A stretch of 49,762 nucleotides of DNA, taken from positions 1 to 49,762 of the forward strand of contig JAICUF010000009.1 of assembly GCA_025935995.1 (NCBI GenBank), in the 5' to 3' direction. Below the pieces are notes generated by a model. That model made no database searches and was not told the DNA's origin. It saw only the letters and a program-made list of their open reading frames with translations. Position numbers and translations under genes: made by a program. This document shows, in pieces, positions 6,172 to 37,970 of the stretch. The stretch comes from Gemmatimonadales bacterium. Lineage in GTDB: Bacteria > Gemmatimonadota > Gemmatimonadetes > Gemmatimonadales > GWC2-71-9. The first letter of the stretch is position 1. Each line of letters starts with the position of its first letter.

Positions 6172-6198
6172 GGAGTCTCCGGGCGGGGGACGCGCTCC

Positions 6199-6624: not shown

Positions 6625-6712
6625 GCCGGACGATAACCGCCGGTGACGCCCCGCACCAACCGGACGCCGCGACGGCCCTAGGTTGGGCTCGGCGCACCGA
6701 CCAGGAGGCTGC

Positions 6713-6904
6713 ATGCGGGAAAACGAGCGAGACATCATCGGCGGCGGGATGGGCGGCAGCAGCGGCAACGCCGGAGAAATCGGGCGGGAGGAACGGGTTC
6801 TGCCCGAAGATGCCGCCGGCGATGTGCCGATCGAGCGGCGACACCACCACGGGAACTACCCCGGGCCCGAGCGCCGGCGCGGCGCGGCTAGCCGGCCGTC
6901 CTGA
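6713..6904 (+). CDS. Small hydrophilic protein of unknown function
   Basis: A 63-residue Gly/Glu/Arg-rich, low-complexity protein with no hydrophobic segment or recognisable domain. It includes a GGGMGGSSGN stretch and a RRHHHGNYPG motif. It is supported by AGGAGG at 6703-6708, 4 nt before the ATG at 6713, and by its position between oppositely directed genes. Its last 17 nt overlap the end of the GH133 gene tail to tail. It is probably disordered. Function not recognised. Confidence 0.55.
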   Translation: MRENERDIIGGGMGGSSGNAGEIGREERVLPEDAAGDVPIERRHHHGNYPGPERRRGAASRPS

Positions 6905-10810: not shown

Positions 10811-10836
10811 GCTCGATCTTAACAGCGCACTTCGGT

Positions 10837-10866
10837 TTGCGGCGGAGCCTGCCTCACGATTAGGAT
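10837..10866 (+). promoter_or_regulatory. Promoter for the DUF1015-serA-serC operon
   Basis: TTGCGG (10837-10842), an 18-nt spacer and TAGGAT (10861-10866) lie directly before the first gene. A transcript start 7-10 nt after the -10 box would fall at or next to ATG 10876, which predicts a leaderless mRNA. Confidence 0.45.
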
Positions 10867-13334: not shown

Positions 13335-13338
13335 CCTC

Positions 13339-20881: not shown

Positions 20882-20892
20882 GAGGAGAGGAC

Positions 20893-22551
20893 ATGCGACC
20901 GATGACACGATTTACGGCAGGGGTGACCGCGCTCGCGGTGGCGGGTGCGGCGGCAGCCGCGGCCCAGGCGATCCACATCCGCGTGCCGAAGGTGCACGTG
21001 GTGGTGCCTCACATCCACGTGACGGCCGCCATGCGGGCCGGCAATCGGCCGGGCCCCGACTCCGCCATGGTGAGCGGATTCCTCGCTTCCCTCGGCCGCG
21101 CCGACGCGGTGGTCTGCGAGATGGCGGTGAACCAGCTCGGCAACTCGTGGGGCCGGTGGGGTGGCGGCGCCAGGAACGGTCTCCGCGATCGCACCGAGCC
21201 CCAGCGCCTGGAGCAGGACCGCCTCGGCGGCTCGGTGGGCGACGCCCGGGCGGTTCCGCTGCTCGCCGCGTCACTGGGCGACCAGAACCCCTGCGTCCGA
21301 CGCGCCGCCGCGCGTTTGCTGGCTTCGAGCACCGTGCCCGAAGCCGTGGCGCGTCTCCGCTCGGCGGCGCAGGCGAGCGACGGCCGCACCCGCGAAGCCG
21401 CGCTCCTTGGCCTGGGCGAGGCCGATGACGCGGCCTCATTCGACGTGATGCTGCGCGGTCTCCACGACAGCGACCCCTATGTCGCCCGGATGGGCGCGTG
21501 GGGGCTCGGGCAGCTCCAGGACCAGCGGTCGGTCACGCCGCTCATCGAGGCGCTCCGCTCGAGCGATGCCGGTGTCCGCGAGACGAGCGCCTGGGCGCTG
21601 GGCAACATTCAGGACCGGCGCGCGGTCGAGCCGCTCCTTCCGCTCCTCAAGGATGGCAGCGCCGACGTGCGCGGCACCACCGCGCACGCGCTGGGCGAGA
21701 TCCAGGATGCGCGGGCCACCAGCGGGCTGGTCGGCGTGCTGAGCGACGCCGACGTCCAGGTGCGCCTCGAGGCGGCTCACGCCCTCGGGGAGATCCAGGA
21801 TCACGCGGCGGTCGACGGGCTCGTGCGCGCTCTCCGGGACGCCGACGCCGATGTCCGCCAGGCGGCAGCACATTCACTCGGCGAGATTCAGGATCCCCGC
21901 GCGGCCGAGCCGCTGGCGGCGCTGCTCACGAGCGGCGATGCCAGCGCCGACGTGCGGCAGGCGGCCGCGCACTCGCTCGGCGAGCTGGATCTCAAGCACG
22001 CGCCGGCCGGCATGATCGCGGCGCTCAGGGACAGGGACGCCGACGTACGCCAGGCCGTGGCCCATTCTCTCGGCGAGATTCAGGACCACGGCGCGGTGGA
22101 CGGACTGATCGGCGCGCTTCGCGATCCCGATGCTGACGTGCGCCAGGCCGCCGCCCACTCGCTGGGCGAGATTCAGGACGCGCGCGCGGGCGACCCGCTG
22201 GCGGCGCTGATGACCGACGGAAATGCCGACGTGAGGCAGGCTGCCGCGCATTCGCTGGGCGAGCTCGAGCTCAAGAGCGCGCCCGCCGGCCTCGCTGCCG
22301 CGCTGCACGACGGCGACCCGGACGTACGCGAGGCCGCGGCACACGCTCTGGGAGAGATCGCCGACCCCGCCTCCGTGCCGGCGCTCTCGGCGGCATTCAA
22401 GGACACCGACACCGACGTGCGCCGCGCCGTGATCCACGCGTTGAGTGAAATCGAGGGCGGGGCTTCCACTGACGCCCTCGTGGCAGCCATGAAGGACGCA
22501 GATCCCGAGATCCGCCGGGCGGCGGCGCACGCCCTGGGTCAGAAGGACTGA
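20893..22551 (+). CDS. Exported HEAT-repeat protein
   Basis: 552 aa from ATG 20893, with a strong GAGGAGAGG just upstream and 11 nt after the M56-HEAT gene. A signal peptide (ending near AAAAAAQA) and a His/Val-rich segment (IRVPKVHVVVPHIHV) precede about 14 tandem HEAT repeats of roughly 31 residues running to the C-terminus. The consensus is DADVRQAAAHSLGEIQD. Repeats 7-9 and 10-12 are copies of one three-repeat block. The repeats resemble those of the upstream peptidase but have a distinct consensus (AHSLGEIQD versus AWALGQLED). Likely an extracytoplasmic scaffold or binding partner. Function not established. Confidence 0.9.
   Translation: MRPMTRFTAGVTALAVAGAAAAAAQAIHIRVPKVHVVVPHIHVTAAMRAGNRPGPDSAMVSGFLASLGRADAVVCEMAVNQLGNSWGRWGGGARNGLRDRTEPQRLEQDRLGGSVGDARAVPLLAASLGDQNPCVRRAAARLLASSTVPEAVARLRSAAQASDGRTREAALLGLGEADDAASFDVMLRGLHDSDPYVARMGAWGLGQLQDQRSVTPLIEALRSSDAGVRETSAWALGNIQDRRAVEPLLPLLKDGSADVRGTTAHALGEIQDARATSGLVGVLSDADVQVRLEAAHALGEIQDHAAVDGLVRALRDADADVRQAAAHSLGEIQDPRAAEPLAALLTSGDASADVRQAAAHSLGELDLKHAPAGMIAALRDRDADVRQAVAHSLGEIQDHGAVDGLIGALRDPDADVRQAAAHSLGEIQDARAGDPLAALMTDGNADVRQAAAHSLGELELKSAPAGLAAALHDGDPDVREAAAHALGEIADPASVPALSAAFKDTDTDVRRAVIHALSEIEGGASTDALVAAMKDADPEIRRAAAHALGQKD
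21811..22374 (+). repeat. Duplicated three-HEAT module
   Basis: Two adjacent copies, 21811-22095 (285 bp) and 22096-22374 (279 bp), each encode three HEAT repeats in the same order. The repeats begin with VDGL, then PLAAL, then APAG. The copies differ by one 2-codon indel and scattered substitutions. This points to a segmental duplication of a three-repeat unit on top of the basic 93-bp periodicity. Confidence 0.75.
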
Positions 22552-23148: not shown

Positions 23149-24744
23149 CTAGCGCCGGCGGGTCGAGGCGCGAACGCCGCAGGAACGGAGCACGCGTACC
23201 GGCGCCTCGTGGTGGGGAAACAGCCGGTGGGCGGCGGCGCCGTGCACGCGCACGCGACCGCACGGGCCCCGCGCCCCGGGCACGCCTGCCAGCATCATCT
23301 GCAGCCGATAGCTGGACGGATCGATCCGCGCGGCCCACTCCACCCATCGCACACTGCGGCCCGAGCCGGCCATCAGCATGGCGGTTGCCTGCGCCGCGCT
23401 CCGCGCCGCGAAGAGCACCGCCGCCGTCGCCGTGATCACCGCGAGCGCGCGCCGCCGGCCGGCGGGCAGCGCAACCACCGCCAGCTCGCGCTGCGGCGGC
23501 AGCAGGGCGCCCAGCAGTCCCCATACGAAGAGACTGGGAATGGCGAGGAGCAGGACCGCATCGAAGCTCCCGACCACCACCACGGCGAGCACGGTGCACA
23601 CGAGCGCGAGTCCGTGCAGTCGCTCCTCGGCCGGTCCGCGCCCGCGCAGTCTCCGCCATCCCACGAACAGCATCACCGCCGCGACCGACCAGAGCGCGAG
23701 GAGCGCCGGCAGCCCGCGTTCCGACGAGATGGCGACCCAGTCGCTGCTGGGCCAGGGGTTGGTCGGCATGATGTCGCCCGTGTCGTAGGCGGGATCGCGC
23801 GGGGTCGTATAGAGGGGATAAGTCACCGGCCAGTTGCCGGGGCCGACGCCGAGAAGCGGGTGGTCGCCGGCCATCCGGAGGGTGTTGCGGTACTGGATCA
23901 GGCGGCCCCGCCCGCTTCCCTCGCGAAAGTTGGCGACGCCGACGAGCGATTCGAGGTACGGCGAGTCCGAGCGCCAGTCCAGCGTGTTGGGAAGCAGCAG
24001 CGCGAGGGCGATCCCGGCGGCCGCCGCGGCCCCGAGCAGGGTGAAGCGCGAGCGATGCCGCCGATCGGCCCACAGCTTCGCAGTCCAGAGTCCCTCCACG
24101 ACCAGAAAAGCCGCCGGCACTGCGGCACCGAGCCACGCAGCGCGCGAGCGCGAGAGCAGGAGCGCCGCAGCGGCAACCGCCGTTCCGACCGCCCCGGCGA
24201 TCGCGCGCCCCCGCGATCGCGTCTCGACCGCCAGAATGACCAGCGCCGGCAGCGCAATGGCGACGAGGTGCGCCATGAAGTTGCGATTGCCGAAGGTGCC
24301 GCCGGGCGCGCGGGTGGCGGTCATGAGCGGGAGGGGAACGCCATAGGCCTGCAGAAGGCCGGTGATGGCGCCGATCACGGCCGCGGCGGCGAGCGCCACG
24401 ACGAGCGGCCGTTCCAGTCGTGCCCTCGCGATCGCGCGCGCGGTCCAGAACACCGCCGCGCCGGAGAAGCTCACGCCGAGCGCGCGGAACGCCAGCCAGT
24501 GATTCTCCGCGAAGATCGCCGAGACGGACGAGAGGGCGAGGTATCCGAGCAGCAGGAAGTCGACCAGTGCGAGCGGCAGGCGCCGCGCCTCGCGGAGCGC
24601 CGCGAGGGCCGCGAGCCCCGCGGCCACGTGAAGCACGAGCTCCTTCGGAACCTGATGGCGGTCGAGATCGAAGAGAGGCGAGGGCAGGGAGGCGAGCACG
24701 CACGCCACGGCGCCGAGCTGGAGCACCCGTCGGGCGGCGCGCAT
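23149..24744 (-). CDS. O-antigen ligase family membrane protein
   Basis: 531 aa with about 10-12 hydrophobic helices. A Wzy_C-type periplasmic loop holds GRGRLIQYRNTLRMAGDHPLLGVGPGNW, followed by SSDWVAISSERGLPAL, the pattern of WaaL/Wzy-type ligases and polymerases. It would join or polymerise lipid-linked glycans on the periplasmic face. The C-terminal 60 residues after the last helix are Arg-rich and not conserved-looking. No glycosyltransferase cluster surrounds it, so the substrate is unknown. Confidence 0.85.
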   Translation of the reverse strand: MRAARRVLQLGAVACVLASLPSPLFDLDRHQVPKELVLHVAAGLAALAALREARRLPLALVDFLLLGYLALSSVSAIFAENHWLAFRALGVSFSGAAVFWTARAIARARLERPLVVALAAAAVIGAITGLLQAYGVPLPLMTATRAPGGTFGNRNFMAHLVAIALPALVILAVETRSRGRAIAGAVGTAVAAAALLLSRSRAAWLGAAVPAAFLVVEGLWTAKLWADRRHRSRFTLLGAAAAAGIALALLLPNTLDWRSDSPYLESLVGVANFREGSGRGRLIQYRNTLRMAGDHPLLGVGPGNWPVTYPLYTTPRDPAYDTGDIMPTNPWPSSDWVAISSERGLPALLALWSVAAVMLFVGWRRLRGRGPAEERLHGLALVCTVLAVVVVGSFDAVLLLAIPSLFVWGLLGALLPPQRELAVVALPAGRRRALAVITATAAVLFAARSAAQATAMLMAGSGRSVRWVEWAARIDPSSYRLQMMLAGVPGARGPCGRVRVHGAAAHRLFPHHEAPVRVLRSCGVRASTRRR

Positions 24745-24917: not shown

Positions 24918-26522
24918 ATGCGCCGACTTCTGTTCTCTCTCGTTGTCCTTGCCGCCGGCGGCTGTCACAAGTTCGACAGCGACGAGATGACCGCCACGCT
25001 CGAGCGGACGGTGACGGCGAAGGCCGCGCCGCGCTACGCCGCGACCCGGTGGAAGATGATGCAGGGCATCTACCACGAGCGCGGGTATGCCCCGATCTGG
25101 CTCGACCGGGAGAAGCCGCGGCAGCAGGCCCGGGATCTGATCGACGCGCTCACCAGCGCGGAGAACCAGGGCCTGCGGATGCACGACTACGACCTCAAGG
25201 GGCTCCGAGCGACGCTCGACCAGGCCTACCACGAGGGCAAGACGACCACGCAGGACCTCGCCAACCTCGACCTGCGGCTCACGTCGCTCTTTCTGGACTA
25301 CGGGCAGGACCTGCTGGTCGGCCGCCTGGATCCGTCGGCGGTGGACAGCGGCTGGTACATCAAGTCGCGACGGAGCGCGGTGGACAGCACGCTGCGCGCC
25401 GCCATCCGCCAGCCCGACTTCCGGTCGATGGTGCAACCACTCATGCCGCAGCAGAAGGAGTACGGCGAGCTGGTGGCGTGGCTGGAGAAGTACCGGGCGC
25501 TCGGCGACCGGGGCGGATGGGCGGCGGTGACGCCGCGGGACACCGCGTCGCTCCGTGCGCGCCTCGCCGCGACCGGGGACATCGACGGCGCCGCCGCGCT
25601 GGCCGACGGCATTCGCCATTTCCAGGCCCGGCACGGGCTCGAGACGACCGGCAAGGTGGACAGTGCGACCCTGGCGGAGCTCAACGTGCCGATCGGGCGC
25701 CGTATCCGGCAGCTCGAGCTCAACCTGGAGCGCCTCCGCTGGCTTCCAGCCGACTTCGGCGACCGGTACGTCCTCGTCAACATCCCCGACTACACCCTGC
25801 ACGCCTACGACAACGGCCGCGAGGCGCTGTCGATGAAAGTCGTGGTGGGCGACGAATACGGTCACGCCACGCCGATCTTCGCCGACACGATGAGCCAGGT
25901 CGTCTTCCAGCCCTACTGGAACGTGCCGCCCAGCATCGTGAAGGCCGAGATCCTGGGGCATGTCCAGAAGGACCCCGGCTACCTGGCGGCGCACCATTAT
26001 CAGGTCGTGCGGGGCAACGGTGACGAGGTGGTGAGCCCGACGTCGGTGGACTGGAACGACATCGATACGACGAAGATGGACTTTCGCGTGCGGCAGGAGC
26101 CGGGCGACGACAACGCCCTGGGGCACGTGAAATTCGTCTTCCCCAACCGCTTCAACATCTACATGCACGATACGCCGGCGCGATCGCTCTTCTCGAAGAA
26201 CGAGCGGTCCGGCAGCCACGGCTGCATCCGGCTCGAGCATCCTGAAGAGTTCGCGGAGTTCGTGCTGGCAGGCGACCCTGCATGGACACCGGACCGCATC
26301 CGGGAGGCGATGGCCTCCGATTCCAACCGCTCAGTCACGGTCAAGCGGCGGCTGCCGGTGTACATCATCTACCTGACCGCCTTCGTCCGCGACGGCCAGC
26401 TTCAGTTCCGGGACGACGTCTACGGCACCGATGCGCGCGCCGCCGCCCGCCTCGGCACGCCGGCGGCGGACAGCGGACTCGACTCGGCCAAGCGCGTGCT
26501 CAAGGGGTCCCTCAAGAGCTGA
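24918..26522 (+). CDS. L,D-transpeptidase (YcbB/LdtD type) lipoprotein
   Basis: 534 aa. The N-terminus is a lipoprotein signal with lipobox LAAGGC. A scaffold region follows (YAPIWLDREKP, LRMHDYDLKGL), then a peptidoglycan-binding domain around residues 215-260 (IRHFQARHGLETTGKVDSATLAELN). The YkuD catalytic domain ends in MHDTP and SGSHGCIRL, with the nucleophile Cys at about 436. It forms 3-3 crosslinks in murein or attaches proteins to it, in the periplasm. Divergent from the O-antigen ligase gene, with 173 nt between them. I see no clear promoter match there. Confidence 0.94.
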   Translation: MRRLLFSLVVLAAGGCHKFDSDEMTATLERTVTAKAAPRYAATRWKMMQGIYHERGYAPIWLDREKPRQQARDLIDALTSAENQGLRMHDYDLKGLRATLDQAYHEGKTTTQDLANLDLRLTSLFLDYGQDLLVGRLDPSAVDSGWYIKSRRSAVDSTLRAAIRQPDFRSMVQPLMPQQKEYGELVAWLEKYRALGDRGGWAAVTPRDTASLRARLAATGDIDGAAALADGIRHFQARHGLETTGKVDSATLAELNVPIGRRIRQLELNLERLRWLPADFGDRYVLVNIPDYTLHAYDNGREALSMKVVVGDEYGHATPIFADTMSQVVFQPYWNVPPSIVKAEILGHVQKDPGYLAAHHYQVVRGNGDEVVSPTSVDWNDIDTTKMDFRVRQEPGDDNALGHVKFVFPNRFNIYMHDTPARSLFSKNERSGSHGCIRLEHPEEFAEFVLAGDPAWTPDRIREAMASDSNRSVTVKRRLPVYIIYLTAFVRDGQLQFRDDVYGTDARAAARLGTPAADSGLDSAKRVLKGSLKS

Positions 26523-26531
26523 CGGGTCGGG

Positions 26532-26798
26532 CTAGCGGTGCCTGAGCGAGTCCCTGGTCGTGTCGCCCATGGTGCCGGCGGCGCCCGTGGGGCTCGTCGT
26601 CCCGGTCCCGCCGGCGCTCGAGCCGGTGGTCCCGGTGCCGCTCGTGGCGGCACCGGTCGTGCCGGTGCCGGTGCCCATCGTCCCCGTCTGGCTCGAGGTG
26701 GTCGCGGCCGAGTCGGCGGCACTGCGGGTGCCATCGGCCTTCGGCCCGCAGGCGGTAATAGCGAGCGCCGCGCCCGCTGCGAGCATGATCCGTATCAT
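26532..26798 (-). CDS. Small Thr/Gly-rich lipoprotein
   Basis: 88 aa. The lipobox LAITAC follows a short hydrophobic signal (MIRIMLAAGAALAITAC). The mature part is low-complexity Gly/Thr/Ser (TGTMGTGTGTTG). Function unknown. Its start overlaps the stop of the upstream Mur ligase gene by 4 nt, so it may be the last gene of the cyanophycin transcript. Convergent with the L,D-transpeptidase gene. Confidence 0.7.
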   Translation of the reverse strand: MIRIMLAAGAALAITACGPKADGTRSAADSAATTSSQTGTMGTGTGTTGAATSGTGTTGSSAGGTGTTSPTGAAGTMGDTTRDSLRHR

Positions 26799-28501
26799 GT
26801 CGATGTCCCTCCCTGCAGAGCGTCGAGCCGCGCCATCACGGCCGGCCGGTCTTCGTGCGTGAGCATGACGACGAGGTCGCCGGGTCGGGCCCAGTCGAGC
26901 GCGGACTCGAGCGCCTCCGGTTCGGTCGTGACCTCGTCCAGCTCTTCCGGCGGCAGTCCGAGGCGGCTGAATTCCGCGGCGAGGATGCGGCGGACCTCAC
27001 CCGGGACACGCCCGCGGTAGAGCGTCGGCAGCTCCTTCAGCACGACGCGCGTCGGCCTGAGGCCCCACGCCGCGCGCGCGAGCTCGCGTATGGCCTCGTC
27101 CCCGCGGTCGCCCGCCTGGCCCACCACGACCAGCCGCCGCTGGCCGCCCAGTGCCTCCACCATCCCCGCCAGCGCGATCAGGCCGTGCGGATTGTGCCCG
27201 TAGTCCACGAGCACCCGCACTCCTCCCACATCGTAGAGATTCCCGCGCCCCGGATTGGTGACCGGTGACCCGAACCCGGCGAGGGCGTCCGCGATCGTTT
27301 CCGGCGTGATGGTCCGGGCGGCGGGAAGGCCGCTCAGGACGGCGGCGGCGAGCAGGGCGGCGAGCGCGTTCGACACGTTGTACCCGGCGGCGCCGCCACA
27401 GGTCATCGGCACGGCGTCGAGGCGTGTCAGGCGGAGGGGCCGGCCGCCCTGCGCGAGCACGAGGCAGCCGTCATCCACGTAGGCCGCGTCGCCCCCGGCG
27501 GCGAGTCCGATGGCAAGGAGCGGGCTGGCGCGGTCCCGCGCGAACCAGCTCGCGGGCGAGACGCCGAGCGCATGGGCGGCGAGACCCGGGTCGTCGGCGT
27601 TGAGGACCACGCGGCCGCCGGGCCGCACCACCCGCGCCGCGACCAGCTTGACGGCGGCGAGAGTCGCCAGATCGTTGACGCCGAAATCGTCGAGGTGATC
27701 CGCGGCGACGTTGGTGAGAATCGTGACGTCCGCGTGATCGACGGCGAGGCCGCGCCGGAGGATCCCGCCGCGGGCCGTCTCGAGCACGCCGATCCGGGCG
27801 CGGGGATCACGGAGCGCCAGGCGCGCACCCATCGGCCCGGCGTAGTCCCCGGTGACGAGCTGATCGCGGCCGACGCTGACGCCGTCGGTCGAGGTGAGCG
27901 CCGGCGTGAGGCCGGCGCCGGCGGCGATCGCGGCGATGAGCCGGGCGGTCGTCGTCTTCCCGTTGGAGCCCGAGACGAGCACGATCGGAATGTCGTGCAC
28001 CGCGGCCCACTCCACCTCGGTCGCGCGGGGAAGTTCGTGCCGCGGCCAGACGCGTGCACCGGTTCCGGTCCCCACCGACACCAGCTCGTCGTCGGCGAGG
28101 AAGGTGAGGCCACGCGCATGGGCCGCGCGGTGGAGATCGGCGAGACGGAGGTCGCGCTCGCGGGCGATGACCTCGCGGAGCCGGGCGGCGGTGGCAGTGG
28201 GGTCGGCGGCCGGCGAGCCGTCGAGCGCCGCCGTGGCCGCCTCCCACGCCGCCTCGTTCACCTCGGTGGCGGCGTAGAGCGCGTCCACCGGCGCGGTGAT
28301 GACCAGACACGCGCCGCCCGCGAAGGTGCGGGCGGCGACGTCCTCGCCCTTCCAGCCGACCAGGTCGAGGAGGCGGCGGGCCTCGTGCCGCCAGAGGTCG
28401 GCGGCGTCGGTCACGTCGCCGGCCACGTCGAGCGCCGCGCCGGGCCGGTCGCCCATGAGGTGGGGTCCCGTGAGCCGGCGCGAGTCGAGCAGCCGGATCA
28501 A
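26795..28501 (-). CDS. Mur ligase-family protein, CphA companion
   Basis: 568 aa from TTG 28501, which overlaps the cphA stop (TTGA). A novel N-terminal region of about 180 residues precedes a Mur ligase core: VLVSGSNGKTTTARL (P-loop), LETARGGILRRGL, NADDPGLAAHALG, and a C-terminal domain with NPGRGNLYDVGGVRVLVDYGHNPHG. These motifs match the C-terminal half of cyanophycin synthetase, but the ATP-grasp domain is absent. It probably works with CphA on cyanophycin or a related peptide. The 1308-aa ORF in the track joins this gene to an out-of-frame shadow of cphA. Confidence 0.88.
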   Translation of the reverse strand: MIRLLDSRRLTGPHLMGDRPGAALDVAGDVTDAADLWRHEARRLLDLVGWKGEDVAARTFAGGACLVITAPVDALYAATEVNEAAWEAATAALDGSPAADPTATAARLREVIARERDLRLADLHRAAHARGLTFLADDELVSVGTGTGARVWPRHELPRATEVEWAAVHDIPIVLVSGSNGKTTTARLIAAIAAGAGLTPALTSTDGVSVGRDQLVTGDYAGPMGARLALRDPRARIGVLETARGGILRRGLAVDHADVTILTNVAADHLDDFGVNDLATLAAVKLVAARVVRPGGRVVLNADDPGLAAHALGVSPASWFARDRASPLLAIGLAAGGDAAYVDDGCLVLAQGGRPLRLTRLDAVPMTCGGAAGYNVSNALAALLAAAVLSGLPAARTITPETIADALAGFGSPVTNPGRGNLYDVGGVRVLVDYGHNPHGLIALAGMVEALGGQRRLVVVGQAGDRGDEAIRELARAAWGLRPTRVVLKELPTLYRGRVPGEVRRILAAEFSRLGLPPEELDEVTTEPEALESALDWARPGDLVVMLTHEDRPAVMARLDALQGGTST

Positions 28502-31281
28502 TCCTCTCCCTCGCTGTCGCGCGCGAAGCGGACGCCACGCACGTCCCGCACGTAGGAGAGGGGACGATCCTCCGGCGGGACGGGGCCGGGTGCCGGCCGG
28601 GTGCGCGGGCGGCGGGCGCCACGCCGCTCGGCCTCGAGTGGACGGAAGCTCACGATCTGCTCCCAGGATCGCGCCACGTTGTCGCCGAAGACCAGCACGA
28701 GATCGCCGGCATTGGCCGAGTGAAGCGCGAGCTCGGTGGCCTCGACCTCGTCGGGCACGACGTCGATGGCGTCGGGGCTCACGCCTTCGGCGAGCAGCGT
28801 ATCGCGGAGGAGCGTCGGAATTTCGTCCGGCCCGCGGCCTCGGAGCGCGTCGTCCCGCCGGCAGATGTAGTGGTCGAAGGAGCCCGCGGTGATGCGGGCG
28901 ATGGCGCGGATGTCCTCGTCGCGGCGGTCGCCCGGCGCGGCGAGGACCACGATGCGCCGTCCGCCGCTGTCGAGCCGCTCGACGAACTGGATCATGGCCT
29001 CGATGGCCGCGGCGTTGTGGCCGTAGTCGAGAATGACCTTGAAGGGGTGCTCGTCGAAGACGTTGCCGCGGCCCGGCGCCTGGAAGAACGTGGTGTCGAA
29101 GGTCTGCAGGCCGTGACGGATGTTCTCCAGCTTGAGTCCCATGCTGAACGCCATCGCCGCGGCGAACATCGCGTTCTGCACCTGGTGCATCGCCCGCGCC
29201 TCGAGCGTGGCCGGGATGAGATGGGCCGGGAGCAGCGGGATGTGCGCCCCATGGTCGTAGATCGTGATCATCTGGCCCGTCATCCCGCCCTCGAGCACCA
29301 CGCCGCGGCCGCCGGCCTGGATGTGCTCCCGCACGAGCGCGTGACTCGGGTCCATCGTCACGTAGCAGACGTGCTTCGCCTCGGTGTGGTCGGCCATGCG
29401 GAGGCAGAGCGGGTCGTCGGCATTGAGGACGGCGGTGTCGCGCGCGACCTCGACCACGATCCGCTTCACCTTGGCCAGCCCTTCGAGCGTATTGATGCCG
29501 CGGAGTCCCAGGTGGTCGGACTTCACGTTGAGCACGGCGCCCACGTCCACGTGCCGCACGCCCATGCCGGCCCGGAGCAGTCCGCCGCGGGCCACCTCGA
29601 GCACCGCCACGTCGACGAACGGATCGCTCAGCACCATGCGCGTCGACACGGGGCCCGTCATGTCGCCCGCAACGGTGCGCTGGCCGTCGATGTAGACGCC
29701 GTCGGTGGTGGTGAGGCCGACGTGATGCCCGGCGAGCTTGTGAATGTGCGCGAGCATCCGCGCCGTCGTCGTCTTCCCGTTGGTCCCCGTCACGGCCGCG
29801 ATCGGAATGCGGCTCGGCGCGCCGGCCGGGAAGAGCATGTCGATGAGCGGCCCGGCCACGTCGCGCGGCCGGCCGGCGCTCGGTGCCATGTGCATCCGGA
29901 AGCCGGGCGCGGCGTTCACCTCGCAGATCGCGCCGCCCACCTCCTTGTACGAGCGGCTGATGTCGGTGGTGAGGAAGTCGACGCCGCCGACGTCGAGCCC
30001 GATCGCGCTCACCGCGCGCACCGCCATCTCGGCGTTGTCGGGATGCACCACGTCCGTCATGTCGATGGCGGTGCCGCCGGTGGAGAGGTTGCCGGTGGAC
30101 CGGAGGAAGACGGTCTCGCCCGCGACCGGCACGCTGGACGGCGTGTAGCCGTGGCGGAGCATCATCTGCTCCGCCTGATGGTCGAACTCGAGCCGCGTGA
30201 GCACCTTCTCGTGGCCGATGCCGCGCCGCGGATCCGCGTTCACCTCCTCCACCAGTGCGGCGATGGTCCGCCGGCCGTCGCCCACCACGTGACCCGGGAT
30301 GCGCTGGGAAACGGCCACCAGCTCGCCGTTGATGACCAGCATCCGGTGGTCGAAGCCGCTGATGAACTTCTCGATGATCACGCTCCGGCTGTGCTCCGCC
30401 GCCACGTCGAAGGCGAGCGCCACCTGATCGCCGTCGGTGAGGCCGATCGAGATGCCGCGGCCGTGGTTGGCGTTCCAGGGCTTCACCACGACGGGGTAGC
30501 CGATCTTCTCCGCGGCGTCCACCGCCGCGGCGGCCGTCCGGACGAGTGCCTGCCGCGGCACCGGCAGGCCGAGCCGCGCCAGCACCTTGTTGGTTTCCTC
30601 CTTGTCGGAGGCGAGCTCCACCGCGATGTGCGAGGTGCGGCTCGTCACCGTCGCCTGCACCCGCTGCTGGTAGCGCCCGTGCCCCAGCTGGATCAGGCTG
30701 TTGGTGCCGAGCCGGATCCACGGGATGCGCCGCTCCTCGGCGGCGTGCACCAGCGCACCGGTGCTCGGTCCCAGCGCATGCCGCTGCGTATAGCGAATGA
30801 ATTCATCCCGGGCGGCGGCGAAGTCGAACCCCTCGGGCACCGAGTCCGCGGGACGCAGCTCCGGCGGCAGGAGGCTGTGCAGCAGCGTGAGGCCGAGGTC
30901 GCCGGCCTCGATGCCGACTTCGGCCTGCTCGTACTGGTAGATGACCATGTACTGCCCGTGCGGGCCGAGCGAGCGGGTCTTCCCGAAGGTGAGCGGATGG
31001 CCCGCGACGTTCTGCAGCTCGATCGCCACGTGCTCCAGGATGTGGCCGAGCCAGGTGCCCCGGTCCTCCGTGAGCCGGCGGACGAACCCGCCCGGCTCGC
31101 CGTAGGAGCAGCCGTGGGTGCGAAGGCCCGGCAGGGCCTCGAGCAGCCCGTCGACAAAGGCGGGGCCGAGTCGGACGGAGGGCCACTCCTCCAGCTCGCC
31201 CAGGTCCAGATCGAGGCGGATGACCGGGAAGTGGGCGTAGAGGCTCGGCCCGACGAAGACGGACCGCTCGAGGATCTTCAT
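28498..31281 (-). CDS. cphA: Cyanophycin synthetase
   Basis: 927 aa, the usual length for CphA. The N-terminal domain (SVRLGPAFVDGLLEALPGL, RLTEDRGTWLGHILEHVAIELQ) is followed by an ATP-grasp domain (YPVVVKPWNANHGRGISIGL, EKFISGFDHRMLVINGELVAVSQR). The Mur ligase domain has a P-loop GTNGKTTTARM near residue 498 and APGRGNVFDEHPFKVILDYGHN. It adds Asp and Arg in turn to build multi-L-arginyl-poly-L-aspartate, a nitrogen reserve. It starts 7 nt after cphB, with GAGGGG as ribosome-binding site. Confidence 0.95.
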   Translation of the reverse strand: MKILERSVFVGPSLYAHFPVIRLDLDLGELEEWPSVRLGPAFVDGLLEALPGLRTHGCSYGEPGGFVRRLTEDRGTWLGHILEHVAIELQNVAGHPLTFGKTRSLGPHGQYMVIYQYEQAEVGIEAGDLGLTLLHSLLPPELRPADSVPEGFDFAAARDEFIRYTQRHALGPSTGALVHAAEERRIPWIRLGTNSLIQLGHGRYQQRVQATVTSRTSHIAVELASDKEETNKVLARLGLPVPRQALVRTAAAAVDAAEKIGYPVVVKPWNANHGRGISIGLTDGDQVALAFDVAAEHSRSVIIEKFISGFDHRMLVINGELVAVSQRIPGHVVGDGRRTIAALVEEVNADPRRGIGHEKVLTRLEFDHQAEQMMLRHGYTPSSVPVAGETVFLRSTGNLSTGGTAIDMTDVVHPDNAEMAVRAVSAIGLDVGGVDFLTTDISRSYKEVGGAICEVNAAPGFRMHMAPSAGRPRDVAGPLIDMLFPAGAPSRIPIAAVTGTNGKTTTARMLAHIHKLAGHHVGLTTTDGVYIDGQRTVAGDMTGPVSTRMVLSDPFVDVAVLEVARGGLLRAGMGVRHVDVGAVLNVKSDHLGLRGINTLEGLAKVKRIVVEVARDTAVLNADDPLCLRMADHTEAKHVCYVTMDPSHALVREHIQAGGRGVVLEGGMTGQMITIYDHGAHIPLLPAHLIPATLEARAMHQVQNAMFAAAMAFSMGLKLENIRHGLQTFDTTFFQAPGRGNVFDEHPFKVILDYGHNAAAIEAMIQFVERLDSGGRRIVVLAAPGDRRDEDIRAIARITAGSFDHYICRRDDALRGRGPDEIPTLLRDTLLAEGVSPDAIDVVPDEVEATELALHSANAGDLVLVFGDNVARSWEQIVSFRPLEAERRGARRPRTRPAPGPVPPEDRPLSYVRDVRGVRFARDSEGED

Positions 31282-31288
31282 CGGCCCC

Positions 31289-32113
31289 TCACGACTTTAC
31301 GCGGACCGCGAGCGCCGGCGCGGCGGCGGCGACGCGAGTATGGAGGTTGAACGTGGAGCCGTGGTCCAGGATGTGGAGCCGGAGGCCGATGAGGCAGACC
31401 GGATCGTTCTTCCGGACCCGCGCCATCGAGGAGAACTCGAGCTCCGAGGGATCTACGATGGTGAGCGCGCCGCCGCCGACCACCTCCAGCGTCTCGTCGG
31501 GTGCAATGAACCCGGCGGTGTTTTCATCCAGCCCGATCCCGATCGCGAACGGATTGAAGGCCAGCGCCGTGAGCAGACGGCCCAGCCGATCGCGCTGGCG
31601 AAAATGCTGGTCGATGATGATCCGGTTGGTGAGGCCGAGGCCCGCGGCCATCGTGACGATCCGCGCCCTGGGGGACGCACCCTCCCGACCGAAGGCGATC
31701 ATGTGCTCCGAGAGGAAGGCGGCGCCGGCCGAGGTGCCGGCCACGTGAACCCCCGCCGCGTTCCGGAGGCGGATCGCCTTCCCGACCTCGGAGCCGCCGA
31801 TCGTGGTGGAGAGCCGGAGCTGGTTCCCGCCCGTGAGGAAGATGCCGTCGACGTCGTCGAGCGCGCGCACATGTCCCGGATCCTGCGCGTCGGCGCGGGC
31901 GCGAATCGGCAGCGAGATCGCCGAGCGGACGCCGAGGCCGGTGAAGAGGGTCACGTAGCGCTCGCCGGTGTCGGCCAGCTCGCTCGCGGTCGGAATGATC
32001 GCGATGCGGGCCTCGTCGGCGCCGCAGAGCGAGGCGAAGCGCCGCAGAATGGCCACGTCGCCGATCTTCTCCTCAGCGCCCCCCACGGGGATGATGTACC
32101 CGCGCTCGCTCAC
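31289..32113 (-). CDS. cphB: Cyanophycinase
   Basis: 274 aa from GTG 32113, with AAGG 9 nt upstream. The ORF track adds 69 unlikely N-terminal residues. It begins VSERGYIIPVGGAEEK and shows GIFLTGGNQLRL, the nucleophile Ser in AGTSAGAAFLSEHMI, and GIGLDENTAGFI. This matches the serine peptidase family S51 cyanophycinases. It cleaves cyanophycin to beta-Asp-Arg dipeptides. First of the cphB-cphA-Mur ligase operon, so breakdown and synthesis are co-transcribed. Confidence 0.94.
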   Translation of the reverse strand: MSERGYIIPVGGAEEKIGDVAILRRFASLCGADEARIAIIPTASELADTGERYVTLFTGLGVRSAISLPIRARADAQDPGHVRALDDVDGIFLTGGNQLRLSTTIGGSEVGKAIRLRNAAGVHVAGTSAGAAFLSEHMIAFGREGASPRARIVTMAAGLGLTNRIIIDQHFRQRDRLGRLLTALAFNPFAIGIGLDENTAGFIAPDETLEVVGGGALTIVDPSELEFSSMARVRKNDPVCLIGLRLHILDHGSTFNLHTRVAAAAPALAVRVKS

Positions 32114-32668: not shown

Positions 32669-33862
32669 GTGAAGCACGCCGGTGTCGTCTGCCTGCTCCT
32701 CGTCAGCGCCTCCGCCGGCGCGCAACAGCCGTTGACCCGCGCGGACGCGGTGGCCGCCGCCGTGGCGCGCGGCGCCCGGGTCGCGCTGGCCCGTGCCGAT
32801 ACGGCCGCCTCCGCGGCCACCCTCGCGGCCGCACGGATGCTGCAGAACCCGACGGCCAGCGCCAGCTACAGCAAGTCGGCGCCGCAATATCACGCCTCGC
32901 TCGACCTTCCACTGGACTTCCTCTGGCTCAACGGGGTGCGGGCCGCCGCCGCGCGCGAGGCGCTCGCCGCCGCGCGGTTTCGCTTCGCGCTCGAGCGCGC
33001 GACGGCGCAGTACGAGGCCGACACCGCCTACACGGCGGCGCTCGCGGCACGGGCGCACGCCCGGCTCTCGCGGCGGAACGCGATCGACGCGGACTCGCTC
33101 CGGCGGATCGCCGCGATCCGGCGGGACGCCGGCGACGCGAGCGATCTCGACGTGGAGCTCGCCACGGTGAGCGCCGGCCAGGCGGCCAATGCCGCGACCG
33201 ACGATTCGCTCGCGGCCATCGCGGCGCTGCTCGATCTGCAGGCGGCGATCGGCCTGCCCGCCGATCGCGTGATGGTGACGCCGACCGACTCCCTGCTGCT
33301 GCCGGACGCGGTGTCGCCCGCCGATTCGGGCCGGCCCCTCGCCGTGGCCGCGGCGGAGGCCACGCTCCGGAGCGAGGAGCGGAGCATCTCGGTCGCGCGC
33401 CGGAGCGCGTGGGCCACGCCGAGCGTCACGATGGGCTTCGAGACGGGCGACCCGGCCGGGGACGAGCCCGGCATTCTGCCGCTCGTCGGGTTCTCGGTGC
33501 CGCTCCCGCTCTTCAACCGGAACGGCCCCGGCGTCGCGCTCGCGACCGCCGCGCGCGAGCGCGCGCGGACCGAGCTCGCAGTGGCGGAGCGTGAGGGCGC
33601 CGCCGGCCGTGCGCGGGCGTTGCGCGACCAGCAGACCGCCCGCGCCCGGGCGGCGCGCGATCAGGCCCTCCTCGCGAGCGCCGAGCGGGTGGCGTCGATG
33701 TCGCTCACGGCCTACGCCGAAGGCGCATCGCCGCTGGCCGGCGTGCTCGAGGCGCGGCGCGCGGCCCGCGATGCGCTGGGCCGCTACATCGACGACCTGG
33801 CCGCCGCGAACGACGCGGCGGCGGCGGTGCGGCTGTTCACCCTCACGGATGCGAGCCGATGA
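32669..33862 (+). CDS. TolC-family outer membrane efflux protein
   Basis: 397 aa from GTG 32669, with GGAGAG upstream. A signal peptide (VCLLLVSASAGAQQ) is followed by two OEP halves, mostly Ala-rich alpha-helical hairpin, with the typical FSVPLPLFNRNGPGV strand segment. It forms the outer membrane duct of a tripartite pump. It overlaps the next gene by 4 nt (ATGA). Confidence 0.92.
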   Translation: MKHAGVVCLLLVSASAGAQQPLTRADAVAAAVARGARVALARADTAASAATLAAARMLQNPTASASYSKSAPQYHASLDLPLDFLWLNGVRAAAAREALAAARFRFALERATAQYEADTAYTAALAARAHARLSRRNAIDADSLRRIAAIRRDAGDASDLDVELATVSAGQAANAATDDSLAAIAALLDLQAAIGLPADRVMVTPTDSLLLPDAVSPADSGRPLAVAAAEATLRSEERSISVARRSAWATPSVTMGFETGDPAGDEPGILPLVGFSVPLPLFNRNGPGVALATAARERARTELAVAEREGAAGRARALRDQQTARARAARDQALLASAERVASMSLTAYAEGASPLAGVLEARRAARDALGRYIDDLAAANDAAAAVRLFTLTDASR

Positions 33863-34902
33863 TCCGCCTGCCCCTCCTGTGTCTCCTGGCGCTTGCGGCG
33901 TGCGGCAAGGCGGGATCGGACGACGACAGCGATGCGGCGCCGCCCGCTGTCGTCAATGCGCGAACCGCCGTCGCCGAGCGGGGCGTATTCCGGGAAACCG
34001 TGGACGCGACCGGGGAGGTCGCGGCACGGCCGGGCAGTGTGGCCGAGCTCGCGGCGCCGGGGCCCACACGCGTCGCGCGGGTCATGGTCGCGGTCGGCCA
34101 GCGGGTGCGCGCGGGCCAGCCGCTGGTGACCTTCGATGAGACCACCTTCGCCGCGGAGGCCCGCACCGCGCAGGCGGCGCTCGCCAACGCCGAGCACGCG
34201 TACGAGCGGGCGCGTCGGCTGTCCGAGGCGGGGATCGTGCCGCGGAAGGAGGCGGAGCAGGCGGCGGCCGACCTCGCGGCGGCGCGGGGCAACGCGCAGG
34301 TGGCGCGGCACACCGAGGCCCTGGCGACGCTGCGGTCGCCGATCGCCGGCGTGCTGACCCGGATGGACGCCGTGCTCGGCGCGTCGGTGGACGCGGGGAC
34401 GCCGCTCGTCGAGGTCGCCGACCCCGCCGCGCTGGATGTGCAGTTCACCCTCTCCCCCGCGGAGGCGGCCCGCGTCCACCCCGGCGCGGAGGTGGAGCTG
34501 GTCGAGGGTCAGACGGCGGGCGGCTCGGCGCTCGGCAGCGGCACCGTCGCCGACATCGGGGTCGCGGTGGACTCGGTGTCGCATGGCGTGCCGGTTCGCG
34601 TCCGGATCACCGCGCCGGCGCGGCCGGTGCGGATCGGCGAGATGGTCACCGGCCACATCACGGCCGCGTCGCGGTCGGACGCGGTCATGGTCCCGGTCGC
34701 GGCACTCGTTCCCGCGGGCGACGACGTCACCGTCTTCGTGGTGGACAGCGCGGGCGTCGCGCACGCGCGGCAGGTGACGGTCGGCGGCCGTTCCCGCACG
34801 GTGGCCGAGATCCGCGACGGCCTCGCCGCCGGGGAGCGGGTGGTGACGGAGGGCGCGTACGGCATCGAGGACAGCGCCCACGTCCAGGCGCGCCCCCGGT
34901 GA
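33859..34902 (+). CDS. RND efflux periplasmic adaptor (membrane fusion protein)
   Basis: 347 aa. Lipobox LLALAAC directs lipidation. A lipoyl half-motif (VAELAAPGPTRVARVMVAVGQRVRAGQPLVTFD), an alpha-hairpin (AEARTAQAALANAEHAYERARRLSEAGIVPRKEAEQA), the second lipoyl half (LRSPIAGVLTRMDAVLGASVDAGTPLVEV) and beta-barrel domains follow in HlyD/MFP order. It links the inner membrane RND pump to the TolC duct. It overlaps both neighbours by 4 nt. Confidence 0.93.
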   Translation: MIRLPLLCLLALAACGKAGSDDDSDAAPPAVVNARTAVAERGVFRETVDATGEVAARPGSVAELAAPGPTRVARVMVAVGQRVRAGQPLVTFDETTFAAEARTAQAALANAEHAYERARRLSEAGIVPRKEAEQAAADLAAARGNAQVARHTEALATLRSPIAGVLTRMDAVLGASVDAGTPLVEVADPAALDVQFTLSPAEAARVHPGAEVELVEGQTAGGSALGSGTVADIGVAVDSVSHGVPVRVRITAPARPVRIGEMVTGHITAASRSDAVMVPVAALVPAGDDVTVFVVDSAGVAHARQVTVGGRSRTVAEIRDGLAAGERVVTEGAYGIEDSAHVQARPR

Positions 34903-37900
34903 AGCTGTTCGACCTGCTGGTCGGCCAGCGGCGGTTCGTCTATCTCGCGATCGGGCTCCTGAGCGCGGCCGGCATCTGGTCGGCGCTCCGGCTCCCGTCG
35001 GCGATCTATCCCGAGCTGGTCTTTCCCCGCGTCACCATCGTGGCCCAGGGCTCGGCGCTCGGCTCGCGGCAGCTCATGTTCAGCGTCGCGCGGCCGATCG
35101 AGGAAGCGGTCAGCATCGTGCCGGGCGTGCGCCGCGTGCGCACGAAGGCGATTCGCGGCGCCGTCGAAACGACGGTCGACTTCGCGCCCGACGCCGACAT
35201 GGTGACCGTGCTGCAGCTGGTGCAGGCGCGGGTGAACCAGGTGAGGCCGGAGCTCCCCGAGGGGCTCGACATCGAGGTCGAGCGGATGACCCCGTCCCTC
35301 TTCCCGGTCATCTCGTACAATCTCGAGGGCGGCGACCCCGCCGCCCTCTACGATCTGGCGCGCTACCAGATCAAGCCGGTCATCTCGCGCATTCCCGGTG
35401 TGGGCCGCGTCGACGTGCAGGGGCAGGACGTCCACGAGATCGAGGTGGTGGCGGATCCCTCGCGCCTCGTGACGGCGGGCCTCGACTACACCACGCTCGC
35501 CGACGCGATCCGCCACGCGACCACGGTGCAGGCCGTGGGACGCGTGGCCCAGGATTACCGGCAGTACCTCGTGGTCACCGACCAGGAAGCCCACACCGTC
35601 GACGACATCGGCGCCGTCGCGCTCCCTGGCGGCCTCCGCGTCCGCGACGTGGCGACGGTGTCCCTGGGTACCGAGGACCACGTGCGCGTCATCGCCGGCG
35701 ATCGCGGGCGGCCCGCCGCGCTCATCAACATCACCCGCCAGATCGGCGGCAACACCGTCGCGCTCGCGGACAGCGTGGCGCGGGTGATGGCGTCCTTCCG
35801 GCCGTCGCTGCCGGCCGGGGTGCGGCTCAAGCCGGTATACGACCAGGCGCTGCTGGTGCGGGACGCGGTGCGCTCGGTGCGCGACGCCATGCTCATCGGG
35901 GCGGCGCTCGCGACCCTGATCCTGCTCGTGTTCCTCCGGCACGGCCGCATCACCGCCATCAGCGCGGCGTCGATCCCCCTCACGCTCGCGGTCACCGTCT
36001 TCCTGATGCGGCTGTTCGGGCAGACCTTCAATCTCATGACGCTGGGCGCGATGGCGATCGCCATCGGGCTCGTGATCGACGATGCCGTCGTCGTGACCGA
36101 GAACATCGCGCGCCACCTCCGGCTCACGCCCGACCGGGAGATCGCGATCCGCGAGGCGGTGCAGGAGCTCATCTGGCCGGTCACGACCTCGACCATTACC
36201 ACCGTGGTGGTGTTCCTGCCGCTCGGGATGCTGCAGGGAGTCGTCGGACAGTTCTTCAAGGCGCTGTCGCTCACGCTCACGATCGCGGTGCTGGTGTCGC
36301 TCCTCATCGCGCTCACGCTCGTCCCTCTCCTGGGCGAGCAGTTCCTGAAGCATGACGAGGGAGCCGGTGAGTCGAGCGGTTTTCTCGCGCGCATCGGCCG
36401 CGGGATCGACGGGGTCGCCGCCCGCTACGAGCGCGCGCTCGGCGGGGCACTGCACCACGCGCGGGCGGTGATCGCCATCGGCATCGGGCTCGTCGCGGCG
36501 GGCGTCGTGGCGTACCGGTTCGCCGGCAGCGGGTTCCTTCCGGAGATGGACGAGGGCGCCTTCGTCCTCGACTACTTCACGCCCGGTGGAACCGCTCTCG
36601 CCGAAACCGACCGGGAGGTGAAGGTGGCGGAGGGCATCCTGGCGTCCACGCCGGAGATCGAGGGCACCTCCCGGCGGACCGGCGCGGAGCTCGGCCTCTT
36701 CGCCACCGAGCAGAACACCGGCGACATCGTGGCCCGCCTCCGGCCGCGGAGCCGCCGCTCGCGCAGCGTCTTCGAGGTGATCGACGACGTGCGCCCGCGG
36801 ATCGAGGCGGCGGTGCCCCGGCTGCACATCGAATTCGTCCAGATTCTCTCGGATGTGGTGAACGATCTGGCCGGAAACGCGAAGCCCGTCGAGATCAAGC
36901 TGTTCGGTGAACAGCTGGATGCGCTCGAGGCCTACGCGAAGCGGCTGGAGCCGGGGATGGAGAAGGTGGCGGGACTCGAGGACCTCTTCAACGGCGTGAG
37001 CGAGCCCAATGCCGAGCTGCTCCTCAGGGTCAGCGACGCCGACGCCGCCCGGGCCGGACTCACGCCGGAGCAGGTCGGCACCGCGGTGAGCGCGCCGCTC
37101 CTCGGCGTGCCGGCCGGCGAGGTGCGGCTCGACGATCGCACCGTCGGCGTGCGCGTCCGGGCGCCCGATGCCGTGCGGTACGATCCGCTCCGCCTCGGCG
37201 CCCTGCCGGTGATGACCGCGGGACGCGAGCCGACCCCGCTCTCGGCGCTCGCCACCTTCACGCCGGCGGAATCACGCGCGGAGCTGTTCCGGGAAAACCA
37301 GCAGCAGATGATCGCGATCACCGCCGACGTGAGCGGCCGTTCGCTCGGCGGCGTCATGACGGACGTCAAGGCCCTCCTGGCCCGGACGCCGCCGCCGGCC
37401 GGCATCCGCGTCGAGCTCGGCGGCCAGTACGCGAGCCAGCAGGAGGCCTTTCACGCGCTGCTGGTGGTGCTGGGACTCGCGGCGGTGAGCGTGGTGGCGG
37501 TCATGGTGGTGCAGTTCGAGTCGTTCACGGAGCCGCTCGTCATTCTGCTCGCGGCGCCGCTCTCGTTCGTGGGCGCACTGCTCCTGCTCCTCCTTACCGG
37601 CACGCCGCTCAACGTCTCGTCGTTCATGGGGCTCATTCTGCTCGTCGGGCTGATCGTGAAGAACGGCATCATCCTGCTCGACTTCACCCGGCACCGCATG
37701 CGGCAGGACGACCTCGCCCTCGAGCCCGCGATCCGCGAAGCCGCCGCGGTCCGTCTCCGCCCGATTCTCATGACGACCCTCTGCACCCTGTTCGGGCTCC
37801 TGCCGCTCGCGCTCGGCCTGGGCGCCGGCAGCGAGATGCAGCGGCCGCTGGCGCTCGCGGTGATCGGCGGGCTGAGTCTCTCCACGCCGATCACCCTCTT

Positions 37901-37970
37901 CGCCATTCCGACGCTGCTCGTGGCCATCCGCGGTCGCGACTACACGCTCCCCCGCGCCCGGCGCACGTAG
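34899..37970 (+). CDS. RND efflux pump, inner membrane permease
   Basis: 1023 aa from GTG 34899 (GTGA overlap). The architecture is AcrB/CusA-like: TM1, a large periplasmic loop, TM2-6, TM7, a second loop, TM8-12. The TM4 signature GLVIDDAVVVTENIARHL carries the Asp pair used in proton relay, as in HAE1-type pumps. The second half ends with GLIVKNGIILLDFTRHRM and PILMTTLCTLFGLLPLALG. Substrate not predictable; the Asp pair is less like the CzcA metal pumps. No regulator gene is adjacent. Confidence 0.95.
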   Translation: MKLFDLLVGQRRFVYLAIGLLSAAGIWSALRLPSAIYPELVFPRVTIVAQGSALGSRQLMFSVARPIEEAVSIVPGVRRVRTKAIRGAVETTVDFAPDADMVTVLQLVQARVNQVRPELPEGLDIEVERMTPSLFPVISYNLEGGDPAALYDLARYQIKPVISRIPGVGRVDVQGQDVHEIEVVADPSRLVTAGLDYTTLADAIRHATTVQAVGRVAQDYRQYLVVTDQEAHTVDDIGAVALPGGLRVRDVATVSLGTEDHVRVIAGDRGRPAALINITRQIGGNTVALADSVARVMASFRPSLPAGVRLKPVYDQALLVRDAVRSVRDAMLIGAALATLILLVFLRHGRITAISAASIPLTLAVTVFLMRLFGQTFNLMTLGAMAIAIGLVIDDAVVVTENIARHLRLTPDREIAIREAVQELIWPVTTSTITTVVVFLPLGMLQGVVGQFFKALSLTLTIAVLVSLLIALTLVPLLGEQFLKHDEGAGESSGFLARIGRGIDGVAARYERALGGALHHARAVIAIGIGLVAAGVVAYRFAGSGFLPEMDEGAFVLDYFTPGGTALAETDREVKVAEGILASTPEIEGTSRRTGAELGLFATEQNTGDIVARLRPRSRRSRSVFEVIDDVRPRIEAAVPRLHIEFVQILSDVVNDLAGNAKPVEIKLFGEQLDALEAYAKRLEPGMEKVAGLEDLFNGVSEPNAELLLRVSDADAARAGLTPEQVGTAVSAPLLGVPAGEVRLDDRTVGVRVRAPDAVRYDPLRLGALPVMTAGREPTPLSALATFTPAESRAELFRENQQQMIAITADVSGRSLGGVMTDVKALLARTPPPAGIRVELGGQYASQQEAFHALLVVLGLAAVSVVAVMVVQFESFTEPLVILLAAPLSFVGALLLLLLTGTPLNVSSFMGLILLVGLIVKNGIILLDFTRHRMRQDDLALEPAIREAAAVRLRPILMTTLCTLFGLLPLALGLGAGSEMQRPLALAVIGGLSLSTPITLFAIPTLLVAIRGRDYTLPRARRT

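What the first reader, a model, noticed from the sequence alone, without database searches (positions are those of the whole stretch)
26795..32113. Cyanophycin operon with a third, ATP-grasp-less Mur ligase gene
cphB, cphA and a Mur ligase-like gene are tightly coupled (7 nt gap, TTGA overlap). The third protein repeats CphA's Mur ligase half but has an unfamiliar 180-residue N-terminal region in place of ATP-grasp. It may form hetero-complexes, prime the polymer, or add a different residue, which would give a modified cyanophycin.
Basis: partly seen in the sequence, partly recalled or inferred. Interest (0 to 1): 0.62.

Follow-up and report, generated by a model that had tools for sequence, protein, structure and literature searches.

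The report
ATP-grasp-less partner of cyanophycin synthetase
The third gene is a stripped-down relative of the enzyme that builds cyanophycin, a bacterial nitrogen store. It has lost one of that enzyme's two joining engines, and wherever I found it in four bacterial phyla it sits beside one particular clade of the full enzyme, so it may modify the polymer in a way nobody appears to have described.

Summary
cphB, cphA and a third gene (here T, 26795-28501, minus strand) are tightly coupled.

T's N-terminal region is not unfamiliar. It is a diverged CphA N domain, and T is CphA with the ATP-grasp core missing (N+M, no G). The AlphaFold model has pLDDT 93.5; Foldseek matches whole CphA1 with TMq up to 0.84, more than the M part alone (0.70) could give.

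T is a real family. In 37 loci from Gemmatimonadota (the window's phylum), Acidobacteriota, Pseudomonadota and Myxococcota it lies directly downstream of cphA (median gap 8.5 nt), next to one CphA clade only. Unpartnered CphA classes have no T.

T is one old clade (100/99), not a copy of its neighbour (AU p = 0.0008). It keeps every ATP and catalytic residue tested (38 of 38). It loses several M-domain residues nearly universal in CphA, mostly around the amino-acid pocket, gains an invariant Arg beside the acceptor site, and lacks the primer-making HxxEH motif.

Best reading: an active side-chain amino-acid ligase working on cyanophycin in trans, probably with changed specificity. The substrate is untested. 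Priming is disfavoured. A close CphA relative makes cyanophycin alone in E. coli, so T is accessory. I found no published description in the library searched.

The parts
31289..32113 (-). cphB, cyanophycinase (peptidase family S51)
   Evidence: TIGR02069 251 bits (cut-off 126.6), Pfam S51
28498..31281 (-). cphA, full-length cyanophycin synthetase 1 (N, G and M domains), member of the T-partnered CphA clade
   Evidence: TIGR02068 1109 bits; phmmer to T. morbirosei and A. baylyi CphA1 1027 and 1015 bits; tree
30802..31281 (-). CphA N domain (aa 1-160) with HxxEH primer-making motif (HILEH)
   Evidence: PF18921; motif in 39/39 partner CphAs
28642..29811 (-). CphA M (Mur-ligase) domain, aa 491-880
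   Evidence: PF08245, PF02875
26795..28501 (-). third gene T: CphA-like N+M protein without ATP-grasp, 568 aa, TTG start overlapping the cphA stop
   Evidence: family alignment; AlphaFold model pLDDT 93.5; Foldseek to CphA1
27998..28501 (-). T N-terminal region (aa 1-168): diverged CphA N domain plus start of the G domain; no HxxEH
   Evidence: hhalign E 1.1e-5 over aa 97-149 against CphA 150-205; Foldseek TMq 0.84 over all of CphA1; HxxEH absent in 38/38
26852..27997 (-). T M (Mur-ligase) domain (aa 169-550)
   Evidence: PF08245 and PF02875; 37% identity to CphA M
27947..27970 (-). T P-loop GSNGKTTT (aa 178-185; K182 = SuCphA1 K499)
   Evidence: invariant lysine
27752..27754 (-). T R250, invariant in T and rare in CphA, beside the acceptor-site motif ARGGxLRRG
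   Evidence: 38/38 T, 9 CphA rows
27008..27037 (-). T loop KELPTLYRGR (aa 489-498), equivalent of the MurE DNPR amino-acid specificity loop, one residue longer than in most CphA
   Evidence: alignment
28503..28511 (-). AGGGAGAGG, possible ribosome-binding site of T inside the end of cphA
   Evidence: sequence

Best explanation
T is a CphA paralogue that kept the polymer-binding N domain and the Mur-ligase M domain but lost the ATP-grasp G domain. It is made with CphB and CphA from one operon. It most likely works in trans on cyanophycin or on nascent chains made by CphA: it phosphorylates a carboxylate of the polymer with ATP and joins an amino acid to it. Because several pocket residues differ from nearly all CphA enzymes while the catalytic ones do not, I think it attaches something other than, or as well as, CphA's arginine, or acts on a differently exposed aspartate. 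Shown here: architecture, family, retained catalytic residues, changed pocket residues, constant adjacency, co-inheritance. Inferred: that it is active, that cyanophycin is its substrate, and that the amino acid differs.
For: The N+M architecture comes from Pfam, the AlphaFold model (pLDDT 93.5, pTM 0.92) and Foldseek to CphA1 over all ~870-895 columns (TMq 0.80-0.84; MurE only ~0.55). The catalytic residues of Su/TeCphA1 (K499, D585, H586, R731, H748) are present in all 38 T. The polymer analogue lies between the N domain and the M core in CphA1 (PMC9427784), and both are kept. Pocket changes: CphA R778 (110 CphA rows) and D781 (110) are lost in T, the 801 loop is altered, and T R250, G225 and N416 are 38/38. 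T is immediately downstream of cphA on the same strand in 37/37 loci. In an unselected sample of 399 Pseudomonadota genomes, 5 of 5 CphAs of this clade have T and the other 24 CphA-bearing genomes have none. Distances of paired T and CphA correlate (Mantel r 0.73, 0 of 2000 permutations as high). 18 of 37 T loci also carry iadA, so the setting is cyanophycin metabolism.
Against: There is no biochemical evidence. Pocket changes could mean lost activity or an altered acceptor rather than a new amino acid; T also evolves about twice as fast as its partner's M domain (median distance 0.93 against 0.44). The loop position equivalent to CphA D801 still has Asp or Glu in 17 of 38 T, and some full CphAs also carry T-like loops (KENEAYRRGR), so the loop alone does not prove a new specificity. 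The window's CphB is an ordinary cyanophycinase, which argues against a radically different polymer.
Confidence: 0.5

Rival explanations
1. T is a second arginine (or lysine) ligase that fills aspartates CphA left bare, raising yield or completeness. It does the same chemistry as the CphA M domain and makes no new polymer.
For: All tested catalytic residues are kept, as are R777 and R805 (MurE substrate-binding equivalents). The window's CphB is of the normal type.
Against: R778 and D781, near-universal in CphA, are lost, and R250 and N416 are newly invariant. A relative expressed without T, TmCphA1, already makes cyanophycin in E. coli (PMC9262961).
Confidence: 0.2
2. T is a non-catalytic or weakly catalytic partner subunit that binds CphA (through M-core surfaces freed by loss of its own G domain) and regulates assembly or processivity.
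For: Translational coupling and co-inheritance. The CphA M core contacts several G cores in the tetramer (PMC9427784). T evolves fast.
Against: The P-loop, catalytic Asp-His pair and lid ATP residues are invariant across four phyla, which a purely structural role does not require. No interface was tested here.
Confidence: 0.13
3. T makes the primer for CphA, for example beta-Asp-Arg from free Asp and Arg.
For: An M-type reaction on free Asp would give beta-Asp-Arg. T has no G domain and so could not elongate.
Against: All 39 partner CphAs keep HxxEH, the primer-making endo-cyanophycinase motif, and no T has it. TmCphA1, of the same clade, cannot start from beta-Asp-Arg (PMC9262961).
Confidence: 0.08
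4. T acts on an unrelated substrate and is merely co-transcribed.
For: No product data; annotated only as 'Mur ligase family protein'.
Against: 37/37 adjacency to one CphA clade across four phyla, and no T found away from cphA except at contig ends.
Confidence: 0.06

Closest known systems
Cyanophycin synthetase 1 (CphA1; PDB 7LG5, 7WAE, 7LGN, 7LGM)
   Same: N domain fold, M domain fold and catalytic residues, operon with cphB; whole-length Foldseek match
   Different: T lacks the G (ATP-grasp) domain and the HxxEH motif, scores 322 against a cut-off of 850 for TIGR02068, and departs from CphA at R778, D781 and other M-domain positions
Cyanophycin synthetase 2 (CphA2) and the second CphA of tandem proteobacterial operons
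   Same: domain-reduced CphA paralogues found beside CphA1; CphA2 also lacks the N-domain motif (PMC9262961)
   Different: CphA2 works with one active site that polymerises beta-Asp-Arg dipeptides (PMC10206079); from general knowledge this is the G domain, with the M lid lost. T is the converse: no G, complete M. The tandem second genes seen here mostly keep N+G+M core
MurE, UDP-MurNAc-tripeptide synthetase
   Same: Mur ligase catalytic fold; GDRD at the substrate Arg position, as in many T
   Different: T scores 64 bits against a 257 cut-off, has a CphA N domain instead of the UDP-binding domain and no DNPR motif
Bacterial 'Mur ligase family protein' entries downstream of cphA (Ruegeria THAF33 WP_152460471.1, Roseateles XES5 WP_226922963.1)
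   Same: same family as T, same place in the operon
   Different: annotated only generically; no functional description found

Membership tests
CphA1 (window cphA, 28498-31281) | score above the TIGR02068 cut-off; N, G and M domains | tested here: met
   1109 bits against 850; PF18921, RimK/ATP-grasp, Mur M and C
CphA1 (window cphA, 28498-31281) | G- and M-site catalytic residues and N-domain HxxEH | tested here: met
   alignment to Su/Te/Tm/AbCphA1 keeps H267, R309, K499, D585, H586, R731, H748 equivalents; HILEH present, spacing Cx21 instead of Cx19
CphA1 (T) | ATP-grasp G domain | tested here: not met
   no ATP-grasp family by Pfam; T is about 300 residues shorter than CphA1 in a whole-length structural match
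CphA1 (T) | score above the TIGR02068 cut-off | tested here: not met
   322 bits against 850, profile 477-853 only
CphA1 (T) | M-domain catalytic residues | tested here: met
   K182, D268, H269, R419, H436 invariant in 38 T
CphA1 (T) | ligates Arg to polymer Asp side chains | not testable with these tools
   needs enzyme assay
CphA2 (T) | polymerises beta-Asp-Arg dipeptides with a single active site (G domain, from general knowledge) | tested here: not met
   T has no G domain and a complete M domain
MurE (T) | score above the murE model cut-off, DNPR motif | tested here: not met
   64 bits against 257.3; loop is KELPTLYRGR
Cyanophycinase (window cphB) | score above the TIGR02069 cut-off | tested here: met
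   251 bits against 126.6

The most novel reading that the evidence does not exclude
T attaches an amino acid other than arginine or lysine to a share of the aspartates (or caps chain ends), so that bacteria in at least four phyla make a chemically distinct, two-ligase cyanophycin whose composition is set by the CphA:T ratio.
Probability: 0.33. Interest if true: 0.78.

Novelty: new variant of a known kind. Interest (0 to 1): 0.52.

Why it matters
Cyanophycin is described as made by one enzyme, CphA1 (or CphA2). Here a second, G-less ligase accompanies one CphA clade across four phyla, the clade that also contains the structurally solved Acinetobacter and Tatumella enzymes. If it modifies the polymer, the known chemistry of cyanophycin is incomplete for these bacteria, and a ready-made trans-acting tailoring enzyme exists for a biopolymer of industrial interest. 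The operon is small enough to test directly in E. coli.

Tried and rejected
1) I suspected that the partner CphA's M domain had lost Arg binding (KE to RR at 799-800), so that T had to supply it. Rejected: TmCphA1 and AbCphA1, of the same clade (TmCphA1 shown active, PMC9262961), carry HR there. 2) I suspected that T had lost a universal acidic pair in the specificity loop. Weakened: full CphAs vary there too, and 17 of 38 T keep an acid. 3) T as a recent tandem duplicate of its neighbour: rejected by tree and AU test (p = 0.00076). 4) The first multiple alignment mis-read minus-strand loci; redone. 5) Global hhalign forced the N-terminal region onto the G domain; the local alignment and the structure give the N-domain match. 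6) No Rfam element or promoter in the region. 8) Paper searches found no description of T; the library holds open-licence papers only.

Full report
Observation. The window's minus strand carries cphB (31289-32113), cphA (28498-31281) and a third gene, T (26795-28501). The genome has no other CphA-like gene. The window lies in Gemmatimonadota: a genome of its phylum set (G262) gives the same hit at the same contig coordinates as the record titled 'Gemmatimonadetes bacterium isolate CSSed10_216R1'.

What T is. Pfam finds only the Mur ligase middle and C-terminal domains in T, which is why the N-terminal 168 residues look unfamiliar. With 30 aligned sequences AlphaFold gives a confident model (pLDDT 93.5, pTM 0.92). 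Foldseek aligns it to cyanophycin synthetases over their whole length (880-895 columns for targets of 868-877 residues; TMq 0.80-0.84 for the best), while MurE gives about 0.55. The M part is 0.70 of T's length, so a TMq of 0.84 requires that the N-terminal region superpose too, in the same relative position. Profile comparison supports this: T 97-149 aligns to CphA 150-205 (E 1.1e-5), and T 2-30 weakly but in register to CphA 1-29, sharing the GPN motif. T is therefore a CphA-like protein with the ATP-grasp core missing.

A family, and always with CphA. T homologues covering the N-terminal region occur in more than 50 of 395 sampled Gemmatimonadota genomes, 5 of 399 Pseudomonadota, about 7 of 247 Acidobacteriota and in Plesiocystis (Myxococcota), and on large plasmids of Ruegeria, Shinella and Roseateles. 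I read 37 T loci in full. In all 37 T follows cphA on the same strand (median gap 8.5 nt, 23 of 36 at 20 nt or less), and in all 34 where cphB lies in the stretch it is upstream on the same strand. Eighteen also carry iadA, beta-aspartyl dipeptidase. The partner CphAs are one class (over 1200 bits to the window's CphA); some 70 loci with other CphA classes have no T. One locus of the partner class, L112 (Arenimonas), could not be judged because its contig ends too soon. An independent search with CphA in the same 399 Pseudomonadota genomes gave five CphAs of this class, and all five have T. The cut at 1200 bits was chosen after seeing the data; the tree gives the same grouping apart from the solved Acinetobacter and Tatumella enzymes, whose genomes were not checked for T.

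History. In a careful tree of M domains T is one clade (100/99), and all T-partnered CphAs fall in one clade together with A. baylyi and T. morbirosei CphA1 (100/100) (larger tree). Forcing T together with its partner CphAs is rejected (AU p 0.00076), so T is not a recent tandem copy. Paired distances correlate (Mantel r 0.73, 0 of 2000 permutations), and T diverges about twice as fast. Shared organismal history contributes to that correlation. The root, and hence whether T split off before all CphA, is not settled, since MurE is a very long outgroup branch.

Function from residues. T keeps the residues shown by mutation or structure to matter for the CphA1 M site: K499, D585, H586, R731, H748 in Su/TeCphA1 numbering (PMC9262961, PMC9427784). 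Thirty-two columns are shared near-invariants. T departs where CphA is near-uniform at H508, Y526, M627, R778, D781, F793 and D801, and it is itself invariant at G225, R250 and N416. R778, D781, F793 and D801 lie in the lid around the MurE amino-acid pocket equivalents; R250 sits beside the ARGG motif, next to the MurE acceptor-binding residues (roles taken from general knowledge of MurE, not tested). This is what one expects of the same chemistry with changed substrates, but it does not name the substrate. The HxxEH primer-making motif is in 39/39 partner CphAs and 0/38 T.

Weighing the explanations. T is not needed for basic synthesis: TmCphA1, nested in the partner clade, makes cyanophycin in E. 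coli by itself (PMC9262961), and the window's CphA has all its own sites. Priming is unlikely because the partner has its own primer site and beta-Asp-Arg does not prime TmCphA1 (PMC9262961). A trans-acting side-chain ligase with changed specificity fits best; a second Arg ligase and a partner subunit remain open.

Comparison and novelty. T fails the membership tests for CphA1, CphA2 and MurE. It is the mirror image of CphA2: M without G. Databases call it only 'Mur ligase family protein', and I found no paper on it in the library available. I rate it a new variant of a known kind: a new domain-reduced member of the CphA superfamily and a new cph operon type, function unproven.

Noticed in passing
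L062:7132-8166, L054:4833-5873(-), L055:8417-9469, L056, L057, L060, L061, L063, L064, L067, L068: Gemmatimonadota operons with the other CphA class carry a different accessory protein of about 345 aa: a CphA N domain with intact HxxEH (11 of 11) followed by a remnant that fits the CphA M core but has no P-loop, then a cphB-like peptidase. It may be a stand-alone primer maker; an isolated SuCphA1 N domain is known to act in trans (PMC9262961). Model pLDDT 79.8, best matches CphA1.
   Followed up: partly
L039 (G330:C72) 5258-14339: One Gemmatimonadota locus holds both systems back to back: a cphB-cphA-T operon and, convergent with it, a cphA of the other class.
   Followed up: no
L107 and L198 (Acidobacteria): A CphA that is sister to the T-partnered clade but has no T in the stretch held; useful for dating when T joined the operon.
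   Followed up: no
window genome G000: No clear iadA in the 87%-complete assembly (best partial hit E 4.5e-6), although 18 of 37 T loci elsewhere carry it; the last step of cyanophycin breakdown may use another dipeptidase.
   Followed up: partly
L093, L110, L078-L081, L191, L193-L195: Tandem cphA pairs in Pseudomonadota (mostly Betaproteobacteria) whose second gene mostly covers N, G and M core only, the reverse reduction to T.
   Followed up: no
L003:1055-3676: In Ruegeria THAF33 a saccharopine-dehydrogenase-like gene and an aldehyde dehydrogenase lie just upstream of cphB-cphA-T; possibly a hint at the amino acid involved, but not seen as a recurrent neighbour.
   Followed up: no
G376:C149:11528-13222 and G044:C7:162718-163899: T-matching stretches with one internal stop codon each in the search output; decayed genes or assembly errors.
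   Followed up: no
window 23149-24744, 24918-26522, 32669-37970, 20736-22551: Neighbours: O-antigen-ligase-like protein, L,D-transpeptidase, a three-gene RND efflux system and a HEAT-repeat protein; none stood out as recurrent in T loci.
   Followed up: partly
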